From positions 675,371 to 689,472 of the forward strand of contig MU631307.1 of NCBI GenBank assembly GCA_026770615.1: 14,102 nt of DNA, in the 5' to 3' direction. The number at the start of each line of letters is the position of its first letter. Positions within the stretch are counted from its first letter, which is position 1. The DNA is from Pavlovales sp. CCMP2436. Its lineage: Eukaryota; Haptophyta; Pavlovophyceae; Pavlovales. Shown here in pieces: positions 3,361-14,102 of the stretch. The notes under the pieces are model-generated. The model was not told the DNA's origin, did no database searches, and saw only the letters and a list, made by a program, of their open reading frames with translations. The position numbers and the translations under genes were made by a program.

Positions 3361-4146
3361 ATGGCGCTTACTGCCCTTCTGCTGCCACTCCTTGCCTCCA
3401 ACTTCTCACTCAAATCGCACTGGGACACAATCTACGCCGCGCCGCGCACCGCGCAAAAGGAGTGGCTGGCCGGGAGCGAGGCACTGCCAGCCGTGCTCTC
3501 GCGGCTCGAGCACCTGGAACCCGGCCGGCGGATGCTCATCCCCGGCTGCGGTATCTCTTCGCTCGGCGAGTCGTTTGCAGGCTGCGGCTGGGAGGTACGC
3601 TGCACACCCTGTCCGATTGAGACCCGGACTTCCACTACCAAGCCTCGAAAAATATGATAGCATTTTCTCCGTGGTTTGACGCGGAGCACGTACGGGTCTC
3701 GATTGGACATCTGCCCACCTTACACGCTTCCGCCCCTCACGCTTCCCAGCTCTCACTGCCTCACCCTACCCACCCCACACGCTGCCTAACCCTGCCCTCC
3801 CCTCGCACGTCCCACCCCTCACCCTACCCACCCCTCGCTGCCACACGCTGCCCACTCCTCACCCTGTCCGATAGAGACCCGGAACTGCTTTTCATTTTCC
3901 TTCGCGATAAATCACTCTGGTAGTTTACGCTAGATCTCCCCTCCGCCATCCTGCTTCGTATTTAGTTATAGCCCCCGCTTAATAACTAAAGGCCGAGTCT
4001 CAATCGAACAGCTCCTCACCATGCCTACCCCTCACGCTGCTCACCCCTCATGCTGCTCAACTCAGGTTCTGAACGTCGATTTCTCCCCGAGCGCCATAGC
4101 CATTGGTAGCGAGCGCACGATGGGGAACCCGTTGGTCGACTGGGAG
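3361..4146 (+). CDS. METTL13-like SAM-dependent methyltransferase, first two exons only
   Basis: Predicted class I methyltransferase of the METTL13/EFM-type group, whose known members mostly methylate protein lysines or N-termini; the substrate here is unknown. Exon 1 is 3361-3594, beginning at the only in-frame ATG. Its N-terminus is hydrophobic (ALTALLLPLLASNF), followed by the family signature HWDTIYAAP...KEWL at residues 20-36 and SAM-binding motif I (LIPGCGISSLGE). Exon 2 is 4066-4146 (VLNVDFSPSAIAIGSERT...VDWE), giving the acidic residue after strand beta-2. The donor GAG/GTACGC, acceptor CTCAG/GTTCTG and donor GAG/GTGATA keep phase 0. The exons for the later motifs (typically a D-K-G-T-L-D stretch) were not found in the next 1.8 kb, so the gene is truncated, interrupted or has a very long intron. 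Intron 1 carries two foldback elements. Confidence 0.8.
3608..3710. mobile_element. Foldback element copy 1 (ends CCTGTCCGATTGAGACCCGG)
   Basis: The left arm CCTGTCCGATTGAGACCCGG (3608-3627) pairs with the right arm CGGGTCTCGATTGGACA (3693-3709) with few mismatches, leaving a spacer of about 65 bp. It begins 13 bp inside intron 1 of the methyltransferase. The same ends occur at 3863-4011 and 13731-13838. It has no coding capacity. Confidence 0.65.
3711..3862 (+). repeat. C-rich degenerate minisatellite in methyltransferase intron 1
   Basis: Imperfect repetition of CTCACCCTACCCACCCC-like words (for example near 3760-3778 and 3814-3837). It resumes at about 4013-4056 after the second foldback element, immediately before the acceptor at 4065. 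The repeat could double as a polypyrimidine tract. Confidence 0.6.
3863..4011. mobile_element. Foldback element copy 2
   Basis: The left arm CCTGTCCGATAGAGACCCGG (3863-3882) is answered by GCCGAGTCTCAATCGAACAG (3992-4011), its imperfect reverse complement. Inside is a second, perfect 9-bp stem, TTTAGTTAT (3961-3969) with ATAACTAAA (3982-3990). It is longer than copy 1 (149 against 103 bp) and the interior is not clearly alike, so only the ends define the family. Confidence 0.6.
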
Positions 4147-4160
4147 GTGATATATATATA

Positions 4161-4323
4161 TATATTAATGTAGGGGGGTTCGGGCTGGCAGTGCGTTTCA
4201 AGTTCAAGTCAGGCTGATCTTAGCGCTCCGACGCAGGCTCCTACGCGCTAAGCCGAAGTGGGGAGATGGTAGAAGTGGTGGATGATGAGGAAGCCGAAAA
4301 CAAAGCGCTAGAGTCGCTGCGCA
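4161..4323 (+). repeat. 164-bp dispersed segment, copy 1
   Basis: Closely similar to 5716-5879, both starting TATATTAATGTAGG just after a (TA)n tract and ending at GAGTCGCTGCGCA. The stretch around 4193-4227 (CGTTTCAAGTTCAAGTCAGG onward) is identical in both copies. After an acceptor-like ATCTTAG (4202-4220 region) an open frame reads RSDAGSYALS...MVEVVDDEEAENKALESLR. Differences from the other copy are mostly amino-acid-changing, which argues against conserved coding. Confidence 0.75.
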
Positions 4324-4421
4324 ACGCGGGGCCGCCCGACAGTGCGCGAGCAAGCGAGTCCATTGGTGATGTTGGCTTGCTCATTCGTTATTTGTTGGTT
4401 TATCTATTTATGTGCGATCAG

Positions 4422-4755
4422 ACCGTCTGGAACGGCAATTGCGCGCGGCAGGTGGCGCCCGATAACAATCATTTGACCCCCCCCCCTCCCCTCCCCCCCA
4501 ACTCGCTACTCCGCGACCCCCCTTTGACCCCCCCCCCCTTCCCCCCCCCTTTGGCACAGGCCGTCTGGGACGGCATCTGCGCGCGGCAGGTGGCGCTCAA
4601 TAACAATCATTTGACCCCCCCCCCCCTCCCCTCCCCCCCAACTCGTTACTCCGCGACCCCCCTTTCACCCCCCCCTCCCCCCAAATGACACAGGCCGTCT
4701 GGGACGGCATCTGCGCGCGTCAGGTGGCGAGCGCGGACGACGCCGAAGCGCTTGC
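4422..4755 (+). repeat. Exon present three times in tandem (period about 136 bp), two copies decayed
   Basis: Acceptor-like CAG plus CCGTCTGGNACGGCA...TGCGCGCGNCAGGTGGCG begins at 4422, 4560 and 4694. Copies 1 and 2 lose the exon after GGTGGCG and continue into near-identical poly-C intron-like sequence (AATAACAATCATTTGACC then C tracts). Copy 3 continues into a full exon of 62 nt with a good donor (GC/GTGAGT at 4756). The arrangement is two relic exons, each with its following intron piece, ahead of the intact exon. Confidence 0.8.
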
Positions 4756-5697: not shown

Positions 5698-5715
5698 TAT
5701 ATGCATTACATGATT

Positions 5716-5879
5716 TATATTAATGTAGGAGGGGTTCGGGCGGGCGGTACGTTTCAAGTTCAAGTCAGGCTGATCTTAGCGCTCTGACGCAGACTCCTAC
5801 GCGCTACGCCGAAGTGTGGAGCTGGTAGAAGTGGTGGATGATGAGAAAGCCAAAAACAAAGCGTTGGAGTCGCTGCGCA
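5716..5879 (+). repeat. 164-bp dispersed segment, copy 2
   Basis: Second copy of 4161-4323, with about ten substitutions and a one-base length difference in the GTAGGAGGGG stretch. An open frame runs from an acceptor-like CTTAG through VELVEVVDDEKAKNKALESLR and on to a TAA at 5942-5944. Downstream similarity to copy 1 ends after CTGCGCA. Confidence 0.75.
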
Positions 5880-5900
5880 CCAATCCACTCTTCGGAGCTA

Positions 5901-5945
5901 CGTCGTTAAAAGCCGCTGACGACGAGGGGGCGCGAGCGGAATAAG
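5901..5945 (+). repeat. Short dispersed motif (CGTCGTT...GCGGAATAA), copy 1
   Basis: Resembles 11546-11591 and 13575-13620. The shared pattern is CGTCGTTA, a few bases, CGACGA, then an AG/G-rich stretch and GCGGAATA. In this copy the stem partner of CGTCG is altered (GCTGACGACG). Confidence 0.5.
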
Positions 5946-9633: not shown

Positions 9634-9635
9634 TA

Positions 9636-9802
9636 CAGGGTGTCGCGGGCAATAAGAACCCGTAACGTTAAGAAATCGAGCCTCATTTCTGTGCCCTTTA
9701 ATAGTGATTAAAACAAAATTTAAGCATTTAATGTTTATGTAATTTGCTAAGAAACTAAGCCTCAGTCTCAAAAGCGCCGTTCTTATTGCCCGCGACATTC
9801 TG
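9636..9802. mobile_element. TA-flanked MITE, copy 1 (167 bp)
   Basis: The ends are CAGGGTGTCGCGGGCAATAA and its near-exact complement TTATTGCCCGCGACATTCTG; 19 bp (TGTCGCGGGCAATAAGAAC) are perfectly inverted. Both sides carry TA (9634-9635 and 9803-9804), as expected of a Tc1/mariner-type TA target duplication. The interior is AT-rich and non-coding (TTTAAGCATTT, ATGTAATTTGCTAAGAA). It is the same family as 10299-10464. Confidence 0.8.
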
Positions 9803-10076: not shown

Positions 10077-10298
10077 TAGAAGAAAGACTGGCAGGGCATC
10101 AAAAGCCCCTACTACAGAGGAAAAAGACTTTAGTCATAGGTTTGCTATTTCGAGTCGAAATCACGAACCCTGACGACGGCGACTTAAGCTCAATTACTTC
10201 AACTCTTCCGATCGGTCTGCAGGACCTGGCGTGGGTGGCGGCGGTGGCGGCTTGGGCTGCTCCTCCTGCTACCGGCCAACACGGTGAGAATCTCCCTA

Positions 10299-10464
10299 CA
10301 GGGATCGCGGGCAATAAGAAGCCGTAGTGTTAAGAAGCTGAGCCTCGTTTTTTTGCATTGTTTGTATGTAATTTAAGCAAATTTAAGCATTGTTTTTATG
10401 TAATTTGCTAAGAAGCTCAGCCTCAAGCTCAAAATTTACCCTTCTTATTGCCCGTAATTCCCTG
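10299..10464. mobile_element. TA-flanked MITE, copy 2 (166 bp)
   Basis: The ends CAGGGATCGCGGGCAATAAG and TTCTTATTGCCCGTAATTCCCTG are inverted with few mismatches and flanked by TA on both sides (10297-10298, 10465-10466). It shares size and interior words with copy 1 (ATGTAATTTGCTAAGAA, AGCCTCA). No transposase is present, so it is a non-autonomous element. Confidence 0.8.
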
Positions 10465-11545: not shown

Positions 11546-11591
11546 CGTCGTTATGAACCGACGACGATAAGAGGTCGAACAAGCGGAATAT
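11546..11591 (+). repeat. Short dispersed motif (CGTCGTT...GCGGAATA), copy 2
   Basis: CGTCGTTATGAACCGACGAC is identical to the start of the copy at 13575. It folds as CGTCG-loop-CGACG. The motif ends with AAGCGGAATA. Confidence 0.6.
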
Positions 11592-12125: not shown

Positions 12126-13441
12126 ATGTCGACGGCCCTGCCTATTGTGGCCATAAGCGCCGCGTGTGGAGCGCTCGCGGCGGTGCTTGCCATGCGCGCG
12201 CTCGGCCCACGCTTTGAGAAACGGACGAAGGGCGCTTCGGCCGCTGCCGTGCTGGCGAAGGAGCTTGGGCTGATTCCGCATCCCGAGGGGGGGTATTTCC
12301 TAGAAACTTACCGAGCGGGCGCGGCACCGATGGCCTCGCGCGGGCAGACAGACGTATGTAACAGCTATGCCAACCCACCCCCACCCACCCACCCATGCAT
12401 CCACCCACCCATCCCCACCCCACCCCCCACCCCCACACTCCACCCCACCCACCCACATGCAGACACATATACAAACCTGCTCACTCACCACCAATACAAC
12501 CACACCACATTCAGCTAACAGCTACCTCCCCCCCCAGACGACGGGAGCGCTGATCTCTGCTCCTGCGCGCGAGGGTGGCACTCGCAACTCGCTCACCTCG
12601 ATTTACTACCTACTCACGCCCGAGTCACCCAGGTTAATGAGTGGGACAGGGGGGACAAGGGGGTGGTGGGAGCATTCTGTGGAATTTAACTTACCCTATC
12701 TTTGATTATTAAAATATTAAATATTGAATATTGAACTCACGCCTGGTGCAACCAGGTGGTGGCCAGGGATAGGGAAAGGGTTCATAGTTGTAAAATAGCT
12801 CCGAGATATGGCCCCGAGATATTAAATATCAAACCACTGCCTGTAATAATACACAGACAGTGGTGTTCGCATAACATGAGCGACCACGTACACACCTACT
12901 ACTCTCACAAATTAGAACAATAACCGTGATTAATACGCTAGGTTAATCACACTCATATGAATTACTACAATATATAATGTTATATTATGTAATATAAATA
13001 ACAGGCAGTGTGATTAATACGCTAGGTTAATAACACTCATATGAATTGCTACAATATATAATGTTATATTATGTAATATAAAGAACAGGCAGTGGTGGGC
13101 GAATAACATGAGCGACCACGTTCACTACTTCCACGGCGGCGGTGATTTGGTAGGAACGCCCCTCCGACCCCCCCCCCGCTCCTCTTCCTCATTCTTCTTC
13201 TCCTCCTCCTCCAGACCTATCGCGTGATATTTAGCGACAATCGAAAAAGATGGATCGCTCACACACACACACCTTCTGACTACCCCCCCCCCACCACCAC
13301 CACACACACACACACTCTCTTCTGAGTTCTGACTCATCCCCCCCCCCAGGTCTATCGTGTGATCGAAAAAGATGGATCGCTACACACCCACACGCTCGGC
13401 CCCGCCTGCCCGCAGCTAGTCGTTCGCGGTGGCTCCTACAA
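12126..13441 (+). CDS. Cupin_5 (DUF985) family protein with N-terminal membrane anchor, four exons, 3' end not found
   Basis: Exons 12126-12353, 12538-12632, 13089-13149 and 13350-13441 join in consistent phase. Residues 1-25 (ALPIVAISAACGALAAVLAM) form a hydrophobic anchor or signal. The cupin part has the family opening LAKELGLIPHPEGGYFLETYR, then NSLTSIYYLLTPESP, the metal-site region NMSDHVHYFHGG, and VIEKDGSLHTHTLG...PQLVVRGGSY. Members are small beta-barrel proteins of poorly known function. In this one the usual SDEVWH is SDHVHYFH, so the metal ligands may differ. The final part of the family (usually ending in a cysteine-poor G-F-x-F-x-D-F stretch) should lie in a later exon. Exons 3 and 4 both have decayed partial copies in the neighbouring introns. 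The ATG at 12126 is preceded by GCAG, so a non-coding or short upstream exon is possible. Confidence 0.85.
12366..12536 (+). repeat. CCCACC-type low-complexity tract in cupin intron 1
   Basis: CCCACCCACCCATCC-like repeats grading into AC-rich sequence and a C9 run, ending exactly at the acceptor CAG (12535-12537). Apparent minus-strand frames rich in Gly/Trp/Val are translations of it. Confidence 0.85.
12834..12900 (+). pseudogene. Decayed copy of cupin exon 3 inside intron 2
   Basis: From the acceptor-like ACACAG (12851-12856), ACAGTGGTGTTCGCATAACA continuing to ATGAGCGACCACGTACACAC matches the start of true exon 3 (13089 onward) with few changes, then diverges. The reading frame is broken. 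Its left edge lies in a hairpin, ACCACTGCCTGT (12834-12845) with ACAGACAGTGGT (12854-12865). Confidence 0.8.
12926..13093 (+). repeat. 84-bp tandem duplication in cupin intron 2
   Basis: Two units begin GTGATTAATACGCTAGGTTAA at 12926 and 13010 and differ at few positions. Each ends with ATTATGTAATATAAANAACA and GGCAGT, that is, the acceptor and first bases of exon 3; the second runs into the true exon. The first unit holds a perfect stem GTGATTAA...TTAATCAC, broken in the second by one change. Confidence 0.85.
13214..13275 (+). pseudogene. Decayed copy of the 5' half of cupin exon 4 inside intron 3
   Basis: Following CTCCAG (acceptor-like) the sequence ACCTATCGCGTGAT and ATCGAAAAAGATGGATCGCT matches true exon 4 (13350-13390), but with a 13-base insertion between the blocks that breaks the frame. 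It then dissolves into (CA)n. The true exon begins 136 bp downstream. Confidence 0.85.
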
Positions 13442-13444
13442 GTG

Positions 13445-13573
13445 AGTTACTATTACTACTAGGTTATGAGTATGATTACTATTACTACTAGGTGATGAGT
13501 ATGATTACTATTACTACTAGGTTATGAGTATGATTACTATTACTATTAGGTGATGAGTATGATTACTATTACT
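13445..13573 (+). repeat. 29-bp tandem repeat with alternating variants in cupin intron 4
   Basis: Unit close to ATTACTATTACTACTAGG plus TTATGAGTATG, about four and a half copies, starting directly after the donor GTGAG at 13442. Successive units alternate GGTTATG and GGTGATG. Confidence 0.85.
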
Positions 13574-13574
13574 A

Positions 13575-13620
13575 CGTCGTTATGAACCGACGACGATGAG
13601 GGGTCTCGTGCGGAATAAAG
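13575..13620 (+). repeat. Short dispersed motif (CGTCGTT...GCGGAATAA), copy 3
   Basis: CGTCGTTATGAACCGACGAC then GATGAGGGGTCTCGTGCGGA and ATAAAG. It is inserted between the 29-bp repeats and a (TAC)n tract. Confidence 0.6.
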
Positions 13621-13653
13621 TATATACTACTACTACTACTACTACTACTACTA
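13621..13653 (+). repeat. (CTA)n microsatellite
   Basis: About ten CTA triplets directly after the dispersed motif, as a 3' tail of a retroelement-like insertion might appear. Confidence 0.85.
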
Positions 13654-13730
13654 TTAATATTATTCATAATATTGATATTATTGATATGGTTAATCATTTT
13701 AATGTTATCCCGCCAGACCCCCACCTGTCC

Positions 13731-13838
13731 GCAGCCTGTCCGATAGAGACCCGGGCTATTCTTTTGGGGCTTCGCGTCAGGAGCTCAAATGAGCATATTC
13801 CGGTAACGGTCAAGTCCGGTTTCAACAGGACAGGCTGC
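13731..13838. mobile_element. Foldback element copy 3
   Basis: The left arm GCAGCCTGTCCGATAGAGAC then CCGG (13731-13754) pairs with CCGGTTTCAACAGGACAGGC then TGC (13816-13838). GCAGCCTGTCC is a perfect 11-bp stem. The left end is the same word as in the elements at 3608 and 3863. Confidence 0.65.
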
Positions 13839-13898
13839 AAGTCAGGGGACCTCGGAGGTTTTTTTTTAAAAAAAATACCGGACAGGACAGCTCCCCGC

Positions 13899-13950
13899 TT
13901 GCCCGCAGCTGAACGATTAGCCTACAAGTGAATTACTATCACTACTATGA
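13899..13950 (+). pseudogene. Decayed copy of the 3' half of cupin exon 4 with its donor
   Basis: GCTTGCCCGCAGCTGAACGA then TTAGCCTACAAGTGAATTAC parallels the end of exon 4 and the first intron bases (13411-13450), with deletions that remove part of the coding sequence. The AA/GTGA donor and the following ACTATNACTACTA are kept. Confidence 0.75.
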
Positions 13951-13958
13951 TTTTGACT

Positions 13959-14102
13959 ATGATTAATTTTACCAGTAATAATAACAAACCGGTACCGGTA
14001 TATCTGTGTGCTCGAGGAGTGGTCCTGGACATGTCCGGGAGACCGTCTTCGGGGACAGACGTCCTCATCGGAAATCCTTTCCTTTACGGTATCAATCTAC
14101 CC
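13959..14102 (+). CDS. Partial open frame at right edge, weakly retropepsin-like
   Basis: 48 codons open to the window edge. VYLCARGVVLDMSGRPSSGT followed by DVLIGNPFLYGIN recalls the DVLLGxDFL stretch near the end of retrotransposon aspartic proteases, but the DTGA/DSGA active-site motif is not visible. It may instead be a further exon or chance. Confidence 0.2.
   Translation, partial: MINFTSNNNKPVPVYLCARGVVLDMSGRPSSGTDVLIGNPFLYGINLP

What the first reader, a model, noticed from the sequence alone, without database searches (positions are those of the whole stretch)
12834..13149. Cupin exon 3 is preceded in its own intron by partial copies of itself
The start of exon 3 with its acceptor occurs three times: a decayed 40-bp copy (12857-12900), a six-base stub ending an 84-bp tandem unit (13003-13009), and the true exon (13089). 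Copies of exon boundaries within the upstream intron point to repeated local duplication of intron-exon junctions followed by decay. The same pattern is seen at two other exons in the window, so it may be a genome-wide mode of intron growth or a slippage or template-switch mechanism.
Basis: seen in the sequence. Interest (0 to 1): 0.75.

Follow-up and report, generated by a model that had tools for sequence, protein, structure and literature searches.

The report
Splice junctions duplicated into neighbouring introns
In an Arctic haptophyte alga, short stretches of DNA spanning an intron-exon boundary have been duplicated locally in several unrelated genes, leaving decaying exon fragments inside introns; the kind of mutation is ordinary, but its recurrence at splice junctions is worth a genome-wide count.

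Summary
The start of cupin exon 3 with its acceptor recurs upstream as a decayed copy (12846-12902, 79%) and as the end of an 84-bp tandem unit (96%); 0 of 300 shuffled introns match as well. Exon 4 shows the same on its acceptor side, as does a probable methyltransferase-like exon. The gene is DUF985/Cupin_5; its best match is Pavlovales sp. CCMP2436. Among junctions in 82 loci fetched by Pfam family alone, a uniform rule with two hits discarded by eye leaves 2 of 42 acceptors and 2 of 50 donors with a direct intron-side copy; controls gave no direct hit in 348 comparisons. Of 12 events seen, four clearly abut their originals, four abut only through weak alignment, four do not. Best reading: local, largely tandem duplications that happen to cross a junction and are tolerated because the junction beside the intact exon remains. 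No transposon or acceptor-specific machinery is needed. The same structure is published for a potato gene. Splice-site use is untested. Real, modestly novel through recurrence.

The parts
12126..12353 (+). cupin (DUF985) exon 1, coding part
   Evidence: Pfam Cupin_5 1.1e-5 on 12126-12355; splice sites and joined frame checked
12538..12632 (+). cupin exon 2
   Evidence: TTGALISAPAREGG...SPR aligns with haptophyte homologs; the deposited model P0001 starts it 12 residues later; coordinates checked
12633..13088 (+). intron 2, which holds the copies
   Evidence: donor CAG|GTTAAT and acceptor AACAG|GCAG give the homologous junction SPR-Q-WWANN
12833..12844 (-). exact 12-base inverted copy of the exon 3 junction (13085-13096)
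   Evidence: I1; 3 of 2000 shuffles reach 12, 0 of 500
12846..12902 (+). decayed copy A of intron end + acceptor + about 46 bases of exon 3
   Evidence: 79% to 13078-13134; 50/63 with gaps from 12842; 0 of 300 shuffles
12926..13009 (+). first 84-bp tandem unit, ending in acceptor + first five or six exon bases
   Evidence: 96% to 13010-13093; copies abut, 81/84
13010..13093 (+). second 84-bp unit, crossing the true acceptor into exon 3
13089..13149 (+). cupin exon 3 (true)
   Evidence: conserved QWWANNMSDHVHYFHGGG; P0001 fits the junction; coordinates checked
13215..13272 (+). decayed copy of the start of exon 4 with its acceptor, with a 13-base insertion
   Evidence: (D3), (13156-13272 against 13282-13393, 83/127, 9 bases between, intron part low-complexity); 0 of 300 shuffles; stop in frame
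13350..13441 (+). cupin exon 4 (true)
   Evidence: VYRVIEKDGSLHTHTLGPACPQLVVRGGSY in homologs and P0001
13893..13972 (+). decayed copy of the end of exon 4 with donor and start of intron 4
   Evidence: 76% to 13400-13485, 87 columns; 69/92 with gaps; 0 of 300 shuffles
4419..4457 (+). copy 1 of the start of the methyltransferase-like exon with its acceptor
   Evidence: 138-bp array 4419-4729; 87% to 4691-4729
4557..4595 (+). copy 2 of the same
4694..4755 (+). methyltransferase-like exon (exon status inferred from splice sites and frame only)
   Evidence: Pfam TPMT match of the joined peptide covers only residues before it

Best explanation
Small local duplications, largely tandem, occur in many of the loci sampled from this genome. 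When one happens to span a splice junction it gives intron end + acceptor + exon start twice, or exon end + donor + intron start twice. The change is tolerated because the junction next to the intact exon remains and can still yield the normal mRNA. The other copy becomes intron, adds its length to it, and decays. Shown: the copies, their register with the junction, abutting copies in four of 12 events, decay in cupin copy A, recurrence in unrelated genes, cases on both acceptor and donor sides, and no inverted copy of 30 bits or more at the junctions surveyed. Inferred: which acceptor is used, the order of events, that the non-abutting cases began as tandem units, and the molecular cause. The likeliest cause is fill-in of staggered breaks followed by end-joining; replication slippage is possible.
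For: Register and significance. Junctions fixed by conservation and the deposited model. Survey: at 30 bits or more, 3 of 40 exon starts have a direct copy in the 700 bp upstream and 4 of 47 exon ends a direct copy downstream; 0 inverted among these 87; 0 direct in 348 comparisons with loci of other families; wrong-side tests 0 of 47 and 1 of 40, that one being L073 again, whose exon is only 110 nt. Two donor hits were discarded by eye, L030 (repeat inside coding sequence) and L008 (3' end of the coding region). L057 had been set by hand; under one rule for all stop-bearing matches it scores no hit and six junctions join the count, L057's own acceptor among them, which leaves 2 of 42 acceptors and 2 of 50 donors. 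Fisher: 4 of 86 against 0 of 348, p 0.0015; with the hand-set L057, 5 of 87, p 3e-4. Clearly abutting or within 5 bases: cupin 84-bp unit, the 4694-exon array, L082 first exon, L080. The 84-bp unit shares one base at its ends, which fits end-joining better than recombination between existing repeats. Small tandem duplications are described as the commonest human insertions under 100 bp and as arising by fill-in at breaks with 3' overhangs (PMC8355091, abstract and introduction read).
Against: Only four of 12 events clearly abut. In cupin exon 4, L082 second exon, L079 and L073 the copies meet only if low-complexity or low-identity stretches are counted; the strong parts lie apart. L057 and L072 leave 25-34 and 51 unrelated bases between copies. 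Cupin copy A lies 232 bp from the exon; an original 148-bp unit is inferred, and homology upstream stops after 17 intron bases. The exon 4 donor copy is 492 bp away. All vetted survey cases are helicase loci, which supply 33 of the 87 junctions. A cruder test with the Pfam match alone against its own 1-kb flanks gave 7 hits in 164 comparisons at E 1e-3 (one inverted) against 15 in 656 controls (five inverted), a weak contrast; only at E below 1e-5 does it separate (2, L073 and L082; the controls at that level are same-family or overlapping loci). Junctions come from a home-made gene finder anchored on Pfam matches; by eye it misplaced those of L082 and L080. Direct against inverted among the 87 gives p 0.06.
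Confidence: 0.7

Rival explanations
1. Template switching, or break repair with inserted filler, copies the junction into the intron, sometimes inverted, without a plain tandem unit.
For: Exact 12-base inverted copy of the exon 3 junction beside copy A; unrelated bases between copies in L057 and L072; L082 A has a 9-base inverted match (12 of 500 shuffles).
Against: Of 11 junctions tested only exon 3 has a telling inverted match; L057's 12 bases are a palindrome, CCAGGTACCTGG. No inverted copy of 30 bits or more at the 87 junctions. Four events abut cleanly. Raised from 0.12 to 0.16 after the recount of abutting cases.
Confidence: 0.16
2. Insertion of an introner or other transposon with terminal inverted repeats ACCACTGCCTGT...ACAGGCAGTGGT (12833-13096).
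For: The 12-base arms are perfect.
Against: The right arm contains codons for QWW, invariant in the ten aligned sequences, so it was not brought in. 12926-13158 matches only its own locus, and the 34-bp L057 filler only its own place at up to 3 mismatches. Units of different genes look unrelated by eye.
Confidence: 0.03
3. The copies are used as alternative acceptors or exons and are kept for regulation.
For: The AG is intact by eye in cupin A, the first 84-bp unit, the exon 4 copy, both 4694-exon copies, both L082 copies and L057; cupin copy A spliced to exon 2 stays in frame for 22 codons, to the TAA ending at 12923 (ORF).
Against: Copies break residues: W to C, A to S, N to H in copy A, V to E in L082. 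Copies run into stops: cupin A, exon 4 copy, L057 and L082. L079's copy has lost the AG and L072's copy the donor.
Confidence: 0.06
4. Assembly artefact: allelic or misassembled sequence placed in tandem.
For: The published CCMP2436 assembly is Illumina with AllPathsLG (PMC9756366, passages read). L057's 32-bp copies are identical.
Against: The other 11 of 12 events differ by roughly 3-24% between copies, some with indels and stops; false duplications would be near-identical. They lie on several contigs (C1, C3, C40, C75, C215).
Confidence: 0.04

Closest known systems
Potato RdRp intron gained by tandem duplication across an intron-exon boundary (Ma, Lan and Niu 2016, PMC4974935; abstract and passages read)
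   Same: A tandem unit spans the 3' end of an intron and the start of the next exon, giving acceptor + exon start twice; splicing signals are inherited in the copy.
   Different: In potato a new intron arose from the end of the upstream copy's exon part and the downstream copy's intron part. Here the upstream copy appears to be swallowed by the existing intron (not tested), the event recurs in several genes, and donor-side cases exist.
Small tandem duplications from fill-in at staggered breaks (Schimmel et al. 2021, PMC8355091; abstract and introduction read)
   Same: Local direct duplications; little homology at the ends of the 84-bp unit here.
   Different: Shown in human and mouse cells, where they are discussed as insertions under 100 bp; spacings here run from 38 to about 155 bp in ten events and to 232 and 492 in two; nothing is known to me about repair in this alga.
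Intron gain by duplication of an AGGT-containing exon segment (reviewed in PMC3443670, passages read)
   Same: Tandem duplication touches splice sites.
   Different: No new intron: existing introns appear to lengthen, and the duplicated stretch usually includes intron sequence.
Introners (Gozashti et al. 2022, PMC9860276, one passage read)
   Same: Intron sequence is gained.
   Different: No dispersed copies of the 84-bp unit found, and the direct repeats here are longer than the 3-9-bp target-site duplications named there; the terms for haptophytes and Pavlova have zero occurrences in that paper's main text.

Membership tests
Tandem duplication crossing an intron-exon boundary | direct copies that abut, same orientation | tested here: inconclusive
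   Met in 4 of 12 events: cupin 84-bp, 4694-exon array, L082 first exon (5 bases), L080. Only through weak alignment in 4: cupin exon 4 acceptor, L082 second exon, L079, L073. Not met in 4: L057, L072, cupin copy A and exon 4 donor copy. Same orientation in all 12.
Tandem duplication crossing an intron-exon boundary | unit contains both intron and exon bases at the true junction | tested here: met
   78 + 6 (cupin), 27 + 60 (L082), 8 exon + 30 intron (L080), 17 + 46 (copy A); the L072 copy stops one base before the donor, and in L073 the clear part of the copy is exon only
Tandem duplication crossing an intron-exon boundary | normal mRNA made from the junction next to the intact exon | not testable with these tools
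   only the deposited model P0001, whose protein fits 13089 and 13350; no reads seen
Introner / transposon insertion | dispersed similar copies in other introns | tested here: not met
   12926-13158 matches only its own locus; that search skips simple repeats and very common words, so this is not absolute
Introner / transposon insertion | terminal repeats outside conserved coding sequence | tested here: not met
   the right 12-base arm lies in codons invariant in the alignment
Intron gain | intron absent at the orthologous position in relatives | not tested
   no relative's genome DNA was available
Mutually exclusive exons | complete exon copy with both splice sites and open frame | tested here: not met
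   cupin copies are partial; copy A and the exon 4 copy reach stops

The most novel reading that the evidence does not exclude
Splice junctions in this lineage are preferred sites of small local duplication, for instance through nicks or breaks tied to co-transcriptional splicing. Repeated junction duplication would then be a main route by which introns lengthened in a Pavlovales genome some three to four times the size of that of Diacronema lutheri (119 Mb held here or 165 Mb published, against about 45 Mb), leaving datable fossils of former exon starts and ends.
Probability: 0.12. Interest if true: 0.7.

Novelty: new variant of a known kind. Interest (0 to 1): 0.42.

Why it matters
How introns change length apart from transposon insertion is, to my knowledge, thinly documented. 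Exon fragments inside introns mark where a duplication crossed a splice junction, hint at the order of events, and let the divergence of copies be compared with the age of the intron. If something like 1 junction in 20 to 25 carries such a fossil (4 of 92 here, or 5 of 87 with L057 set by hand), a whole-genome count would measure how much intron length comes from it, whether acceptor and donor sides differ, and how often a spare acceptor is tolerated. It also matters for gene models: the deposited cupin model is already incomplete.

Tried and rejected
An ab initio gene finder retrained on its own predictions missed known exons such as that of L082; I used it only with fixed parameters and Pfam-anchored exons, and judged hits by eye. 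In one search L057's match was shortened by hand after I had seen its duplication, while five other loci with stops in the match (L012, L015, L022, L036, L045) were left out; one search treats all six alike and finds three acceptors (L012, L015, L057) and three donors (L012, L036, L045) testable, none with a hit. A transposon with terminal inverted repeats was rejected because one arm is conserved coding sequence. A source for the L057 filler was sought and not found. A general role of inverted copies was tested and not found. Rfam gave no match at gathering scores in the window. In one search the codon comparison of L082 was out of frame and is not used; one search repeats it in frame. In one search several alignments are trivial self-matches and are replaced, where the row 'cupin E3 copyA' found the 84-bp unit and the row 'cupin E4 donor' an intron repeat; for those two events and for L073 one search is used. 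The tests used exon ends one or two bases off (see parts for the checked ones).

Literature searches answered. Their listings show no report of recurrent junction-crossing duplication in one genome or of introns lengthened this way; the closest is the potato case. The library lacks most subscription papers, so this is no proof of absence. Recalled, from no call: the helicase motifs by which I judged L080 and L082.

Full report
What the window is. It lies at 675371-689472 of contig C1 in a genome of 119 Mb and 703 contigs. The cupin gene matches Pfam Cupin_5/DUF985. Its best protein match, P0001, is named Pavlovales sp. CCMP2436 and equals the exons here apart from a shorter start and a shorter exon 2. 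I infer this haptophyte or something all but identical. The published assembly is given as 165.4 Mb in 2,243 scaffolds, Illumina with AllPathsLG (PMC9756366, passages), so the set held here differs from that figure.

The true exons. Ten sequences were aligned: this gene, P0001 and eight relatives. SPxQWWANNxSDHVHYxHGGG is shared by all ten. This puts the acceptor of exon 3 at 13088/13089. Exon 4 starts at 13350. The four exons, 12126-12353, 12538-12632, 13089-13149 and 13350-13441, join in frame with GT and AG at their borders.

The copies at exon 3. Copy A (12846-12902) is 79% identical to 13078-13134. With gaps the shared stretch is 17 intron and 46 exon bases, 50 of 63. Two abutting 84-bp units follow, 81 of 84 alike. 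None of 300 shuffles of the intron reaches the observed score. Five of six changed codons in copy A alter residues, four of them at positions invariant in the alignment: the copy decays while the exon does not.

More of the same in this gene. Exon 4 has an upstream copy with its acceptor at 13215 (83 of 127, 9 bases between the units, the intron part low-complexity and less telling); read in frame it meets a stop. The end of exon 4 with its donor recurs at 13893-13972. Four other cupin junction tests (start of exon 2; ends of exons 1, 2 and 3) gave 11, 24, 6 and 289 of 300 shuffles reaching the score, which I take as negative. So 3 of 7 tested cupin junctions carry copies; the gene was picked because of them, so this is no rate. 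The exon at 4694 has two upstream copies in a 138-bp array, but its exon status rests on splice sites and frame only.

Does it occur elsewhere? I fetched 80 loci around matches to three Pfam families (30 kinase, 20 short-chain dehydrogenase, 30 helicase C) and 2 of a fourth (proteasome), chosen without regard to repeats. A further family, AAA, was searched but its loci could not be cut out. A fixed-parameter gene finder anchored on the Pfam match gave an exon for 77 of 82 loci; five with stops in the match were left out, and three that overlap other loci were dropped before counting. Requiring the junction within 250 nt of the match and 200 bp of flank left 40 acceptors and 47 donors. At 30 bits or more, 3 of 40 exon starts have a direct copy upstream (L082, L057, L073) and 4 of 47 exon ends one downstream (L008, L080, L030, L072). 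None of the 87 has an inverted copy at that level. Wrong-side tests gave 0 of 47 and 1 of 40. Of 348 comparisons with loci of other families, none was a direct hit and one was inverted.

Vetting. By eye I discarded L030 (repeat inside coding sequence) and L008 (3' end of the coding region). L057's match had been shortened by hand after its duplication was seen. Under one rule for all six loci with stops in the match, three acceptors (L057's among them) and three donors are testable and none has a copy. The fair count is therefore 2 of 42 acceptors and 2 of 50 donors. Fisher p is 0.0015 for 4 of 86 against 0 of 348, and 3e-4 for 5 of 87 with L057. L057 remains a case by inspection: a 32-bp stretch with acceptor, 100% identical, 66 bp apart. 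A second exon of L082, an exon of L079 and an unverified one in L044 also came from self-comparison and are outside the denominator. The vetted cases are all helicase loci, which supply 33 of the 87 junctions; kinase and dehydrogenase loci gave none after vetting. A cruder test with the Pfam match against its own flanks contrasted only weakly at E 1e-3 (7 of 164 against 15 of 656) and separated only below 1e-5 (2, L073 and L082; the controls at that level are same-family or overlapping loci). Coordinates given for minus-strand loci (L008, L057, L073, L079) are in gene orientation.

What kind of change. I count 12 events (five here: copy A, the 84-bp unit, exon 4 acceptor, exon 4 donor, the 4694 array; seven elsewhere: L057, L072, L073, L079, L080 and two in L082). 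Copies clearly abut, or lie within 5 bases, in four: the 84-bp unit, the 4694 array, L080, L082 first exon. In four more they meet only if weak stretches are counted: exon 4 acceptor, L082 second exon, L079, L073. L057 and L072 leave 25-34 and 51 unrelated bases; the L057 filler occurs nowhere else in the assembly at up to 3 mismatches. Copy A and the exon 4 donor copy lie 232 and 492 bp from their originals. The ends of the 84-bp unit share one base, so pre-existing repeats did not mediate it. In the loci sampled (261,048 non-N bases in 79 loci), 56 direct and 19 inverted local repeats under 1 kb were found, many of the direct ones coding arrays.

How it probably works. Breaks with staggered ends, filled in and joined, give small tandem duplications (PMC8355091, abstract and introduction). 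A unit wholly inside an exon usually breaks the protein. A unit across a junction need not, provided splicing keeps the junction next to the intact exon: where the duplicated stretch carries its own intron end, the second acceptor can stay functional. The discarded copy adds to the intron and decays. The selection filter is inferred. Which acceptor is used cannot be seen here; the intact AG in eight copies (by eye) leaves room for some use of the first one.

What is known. The same structure, a tandem unit across an intron-exon boundary, made a new intron in a potato RdRp gene (PMC4974935, abstract and passages). A review lists tandem duplication among routes of intron gain (PMC3443670, passages). 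The listings of seven searches show no account of introns lengthening this way again and again in one genome. [quoted passage not shown]

Verdict. The process is not special to acceptors and needs no new mechanism. Its recurrence is the interesting part and is cheap to measure in full.

Noticed in passing
window 13574-13625, 11546-11576, 5898-5944; L082 1329-1372: A dispersed element of about 52 bp (CGTCGTTATGAACCGACGACGATGAGGGG...CGGAATAA, with a short palindrome). The search had 704 candidates in the genome, scored 40, and all 40 matched, this one included. Rfam has no match in the window at gathering scores.
   Followed up: partly
window 3605-3628, 3860-3883, 13728-13757: A second short repeat, CTGTCCGATAGAGACCCGG and variants, in two genes of the window.
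   Followed up: no
window 4158-4323 and 5713-5879: A 167-bp repeat, 92% identical, 1.55 kb apart.
   Followed up: no
window 9634-9792 and 10297-10454: A 79% direct repeat whose ends also match each other inverted; looks like a small inverted-repeat element.
   Followed up: no
window 12538-12573 and after 13441: The deposited model P0001 lacks 12 residues at the start of exon 2 that homologs have, and ends at SYK, as if the donor AAG|TGA were read as a stop, while homologs P0002 and P0003 continue for some 60 to 85 residues. Later exons should lie beyond the window, where L001 reads N.
   Followed up: partly
L011, L015, L016, L020, L021, L022, L029, L030: Kinase loci carry long arrays of 132-144-bp repeats beside the kinase match.
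   Followed up: no
L044 497-575, 685-742, 835-892: Three copies of an acceptor-like stretch with CTAAC and about 32 following bases; the exon is not verified.
   Followed up: partly
L057 1499-1510 and 1565-1576 (gene orientation): The duplicated junction is a 12-base palindrome, CCAGGTACCTGG, with the acceptor inside it (read by eye).
   Followed up: no
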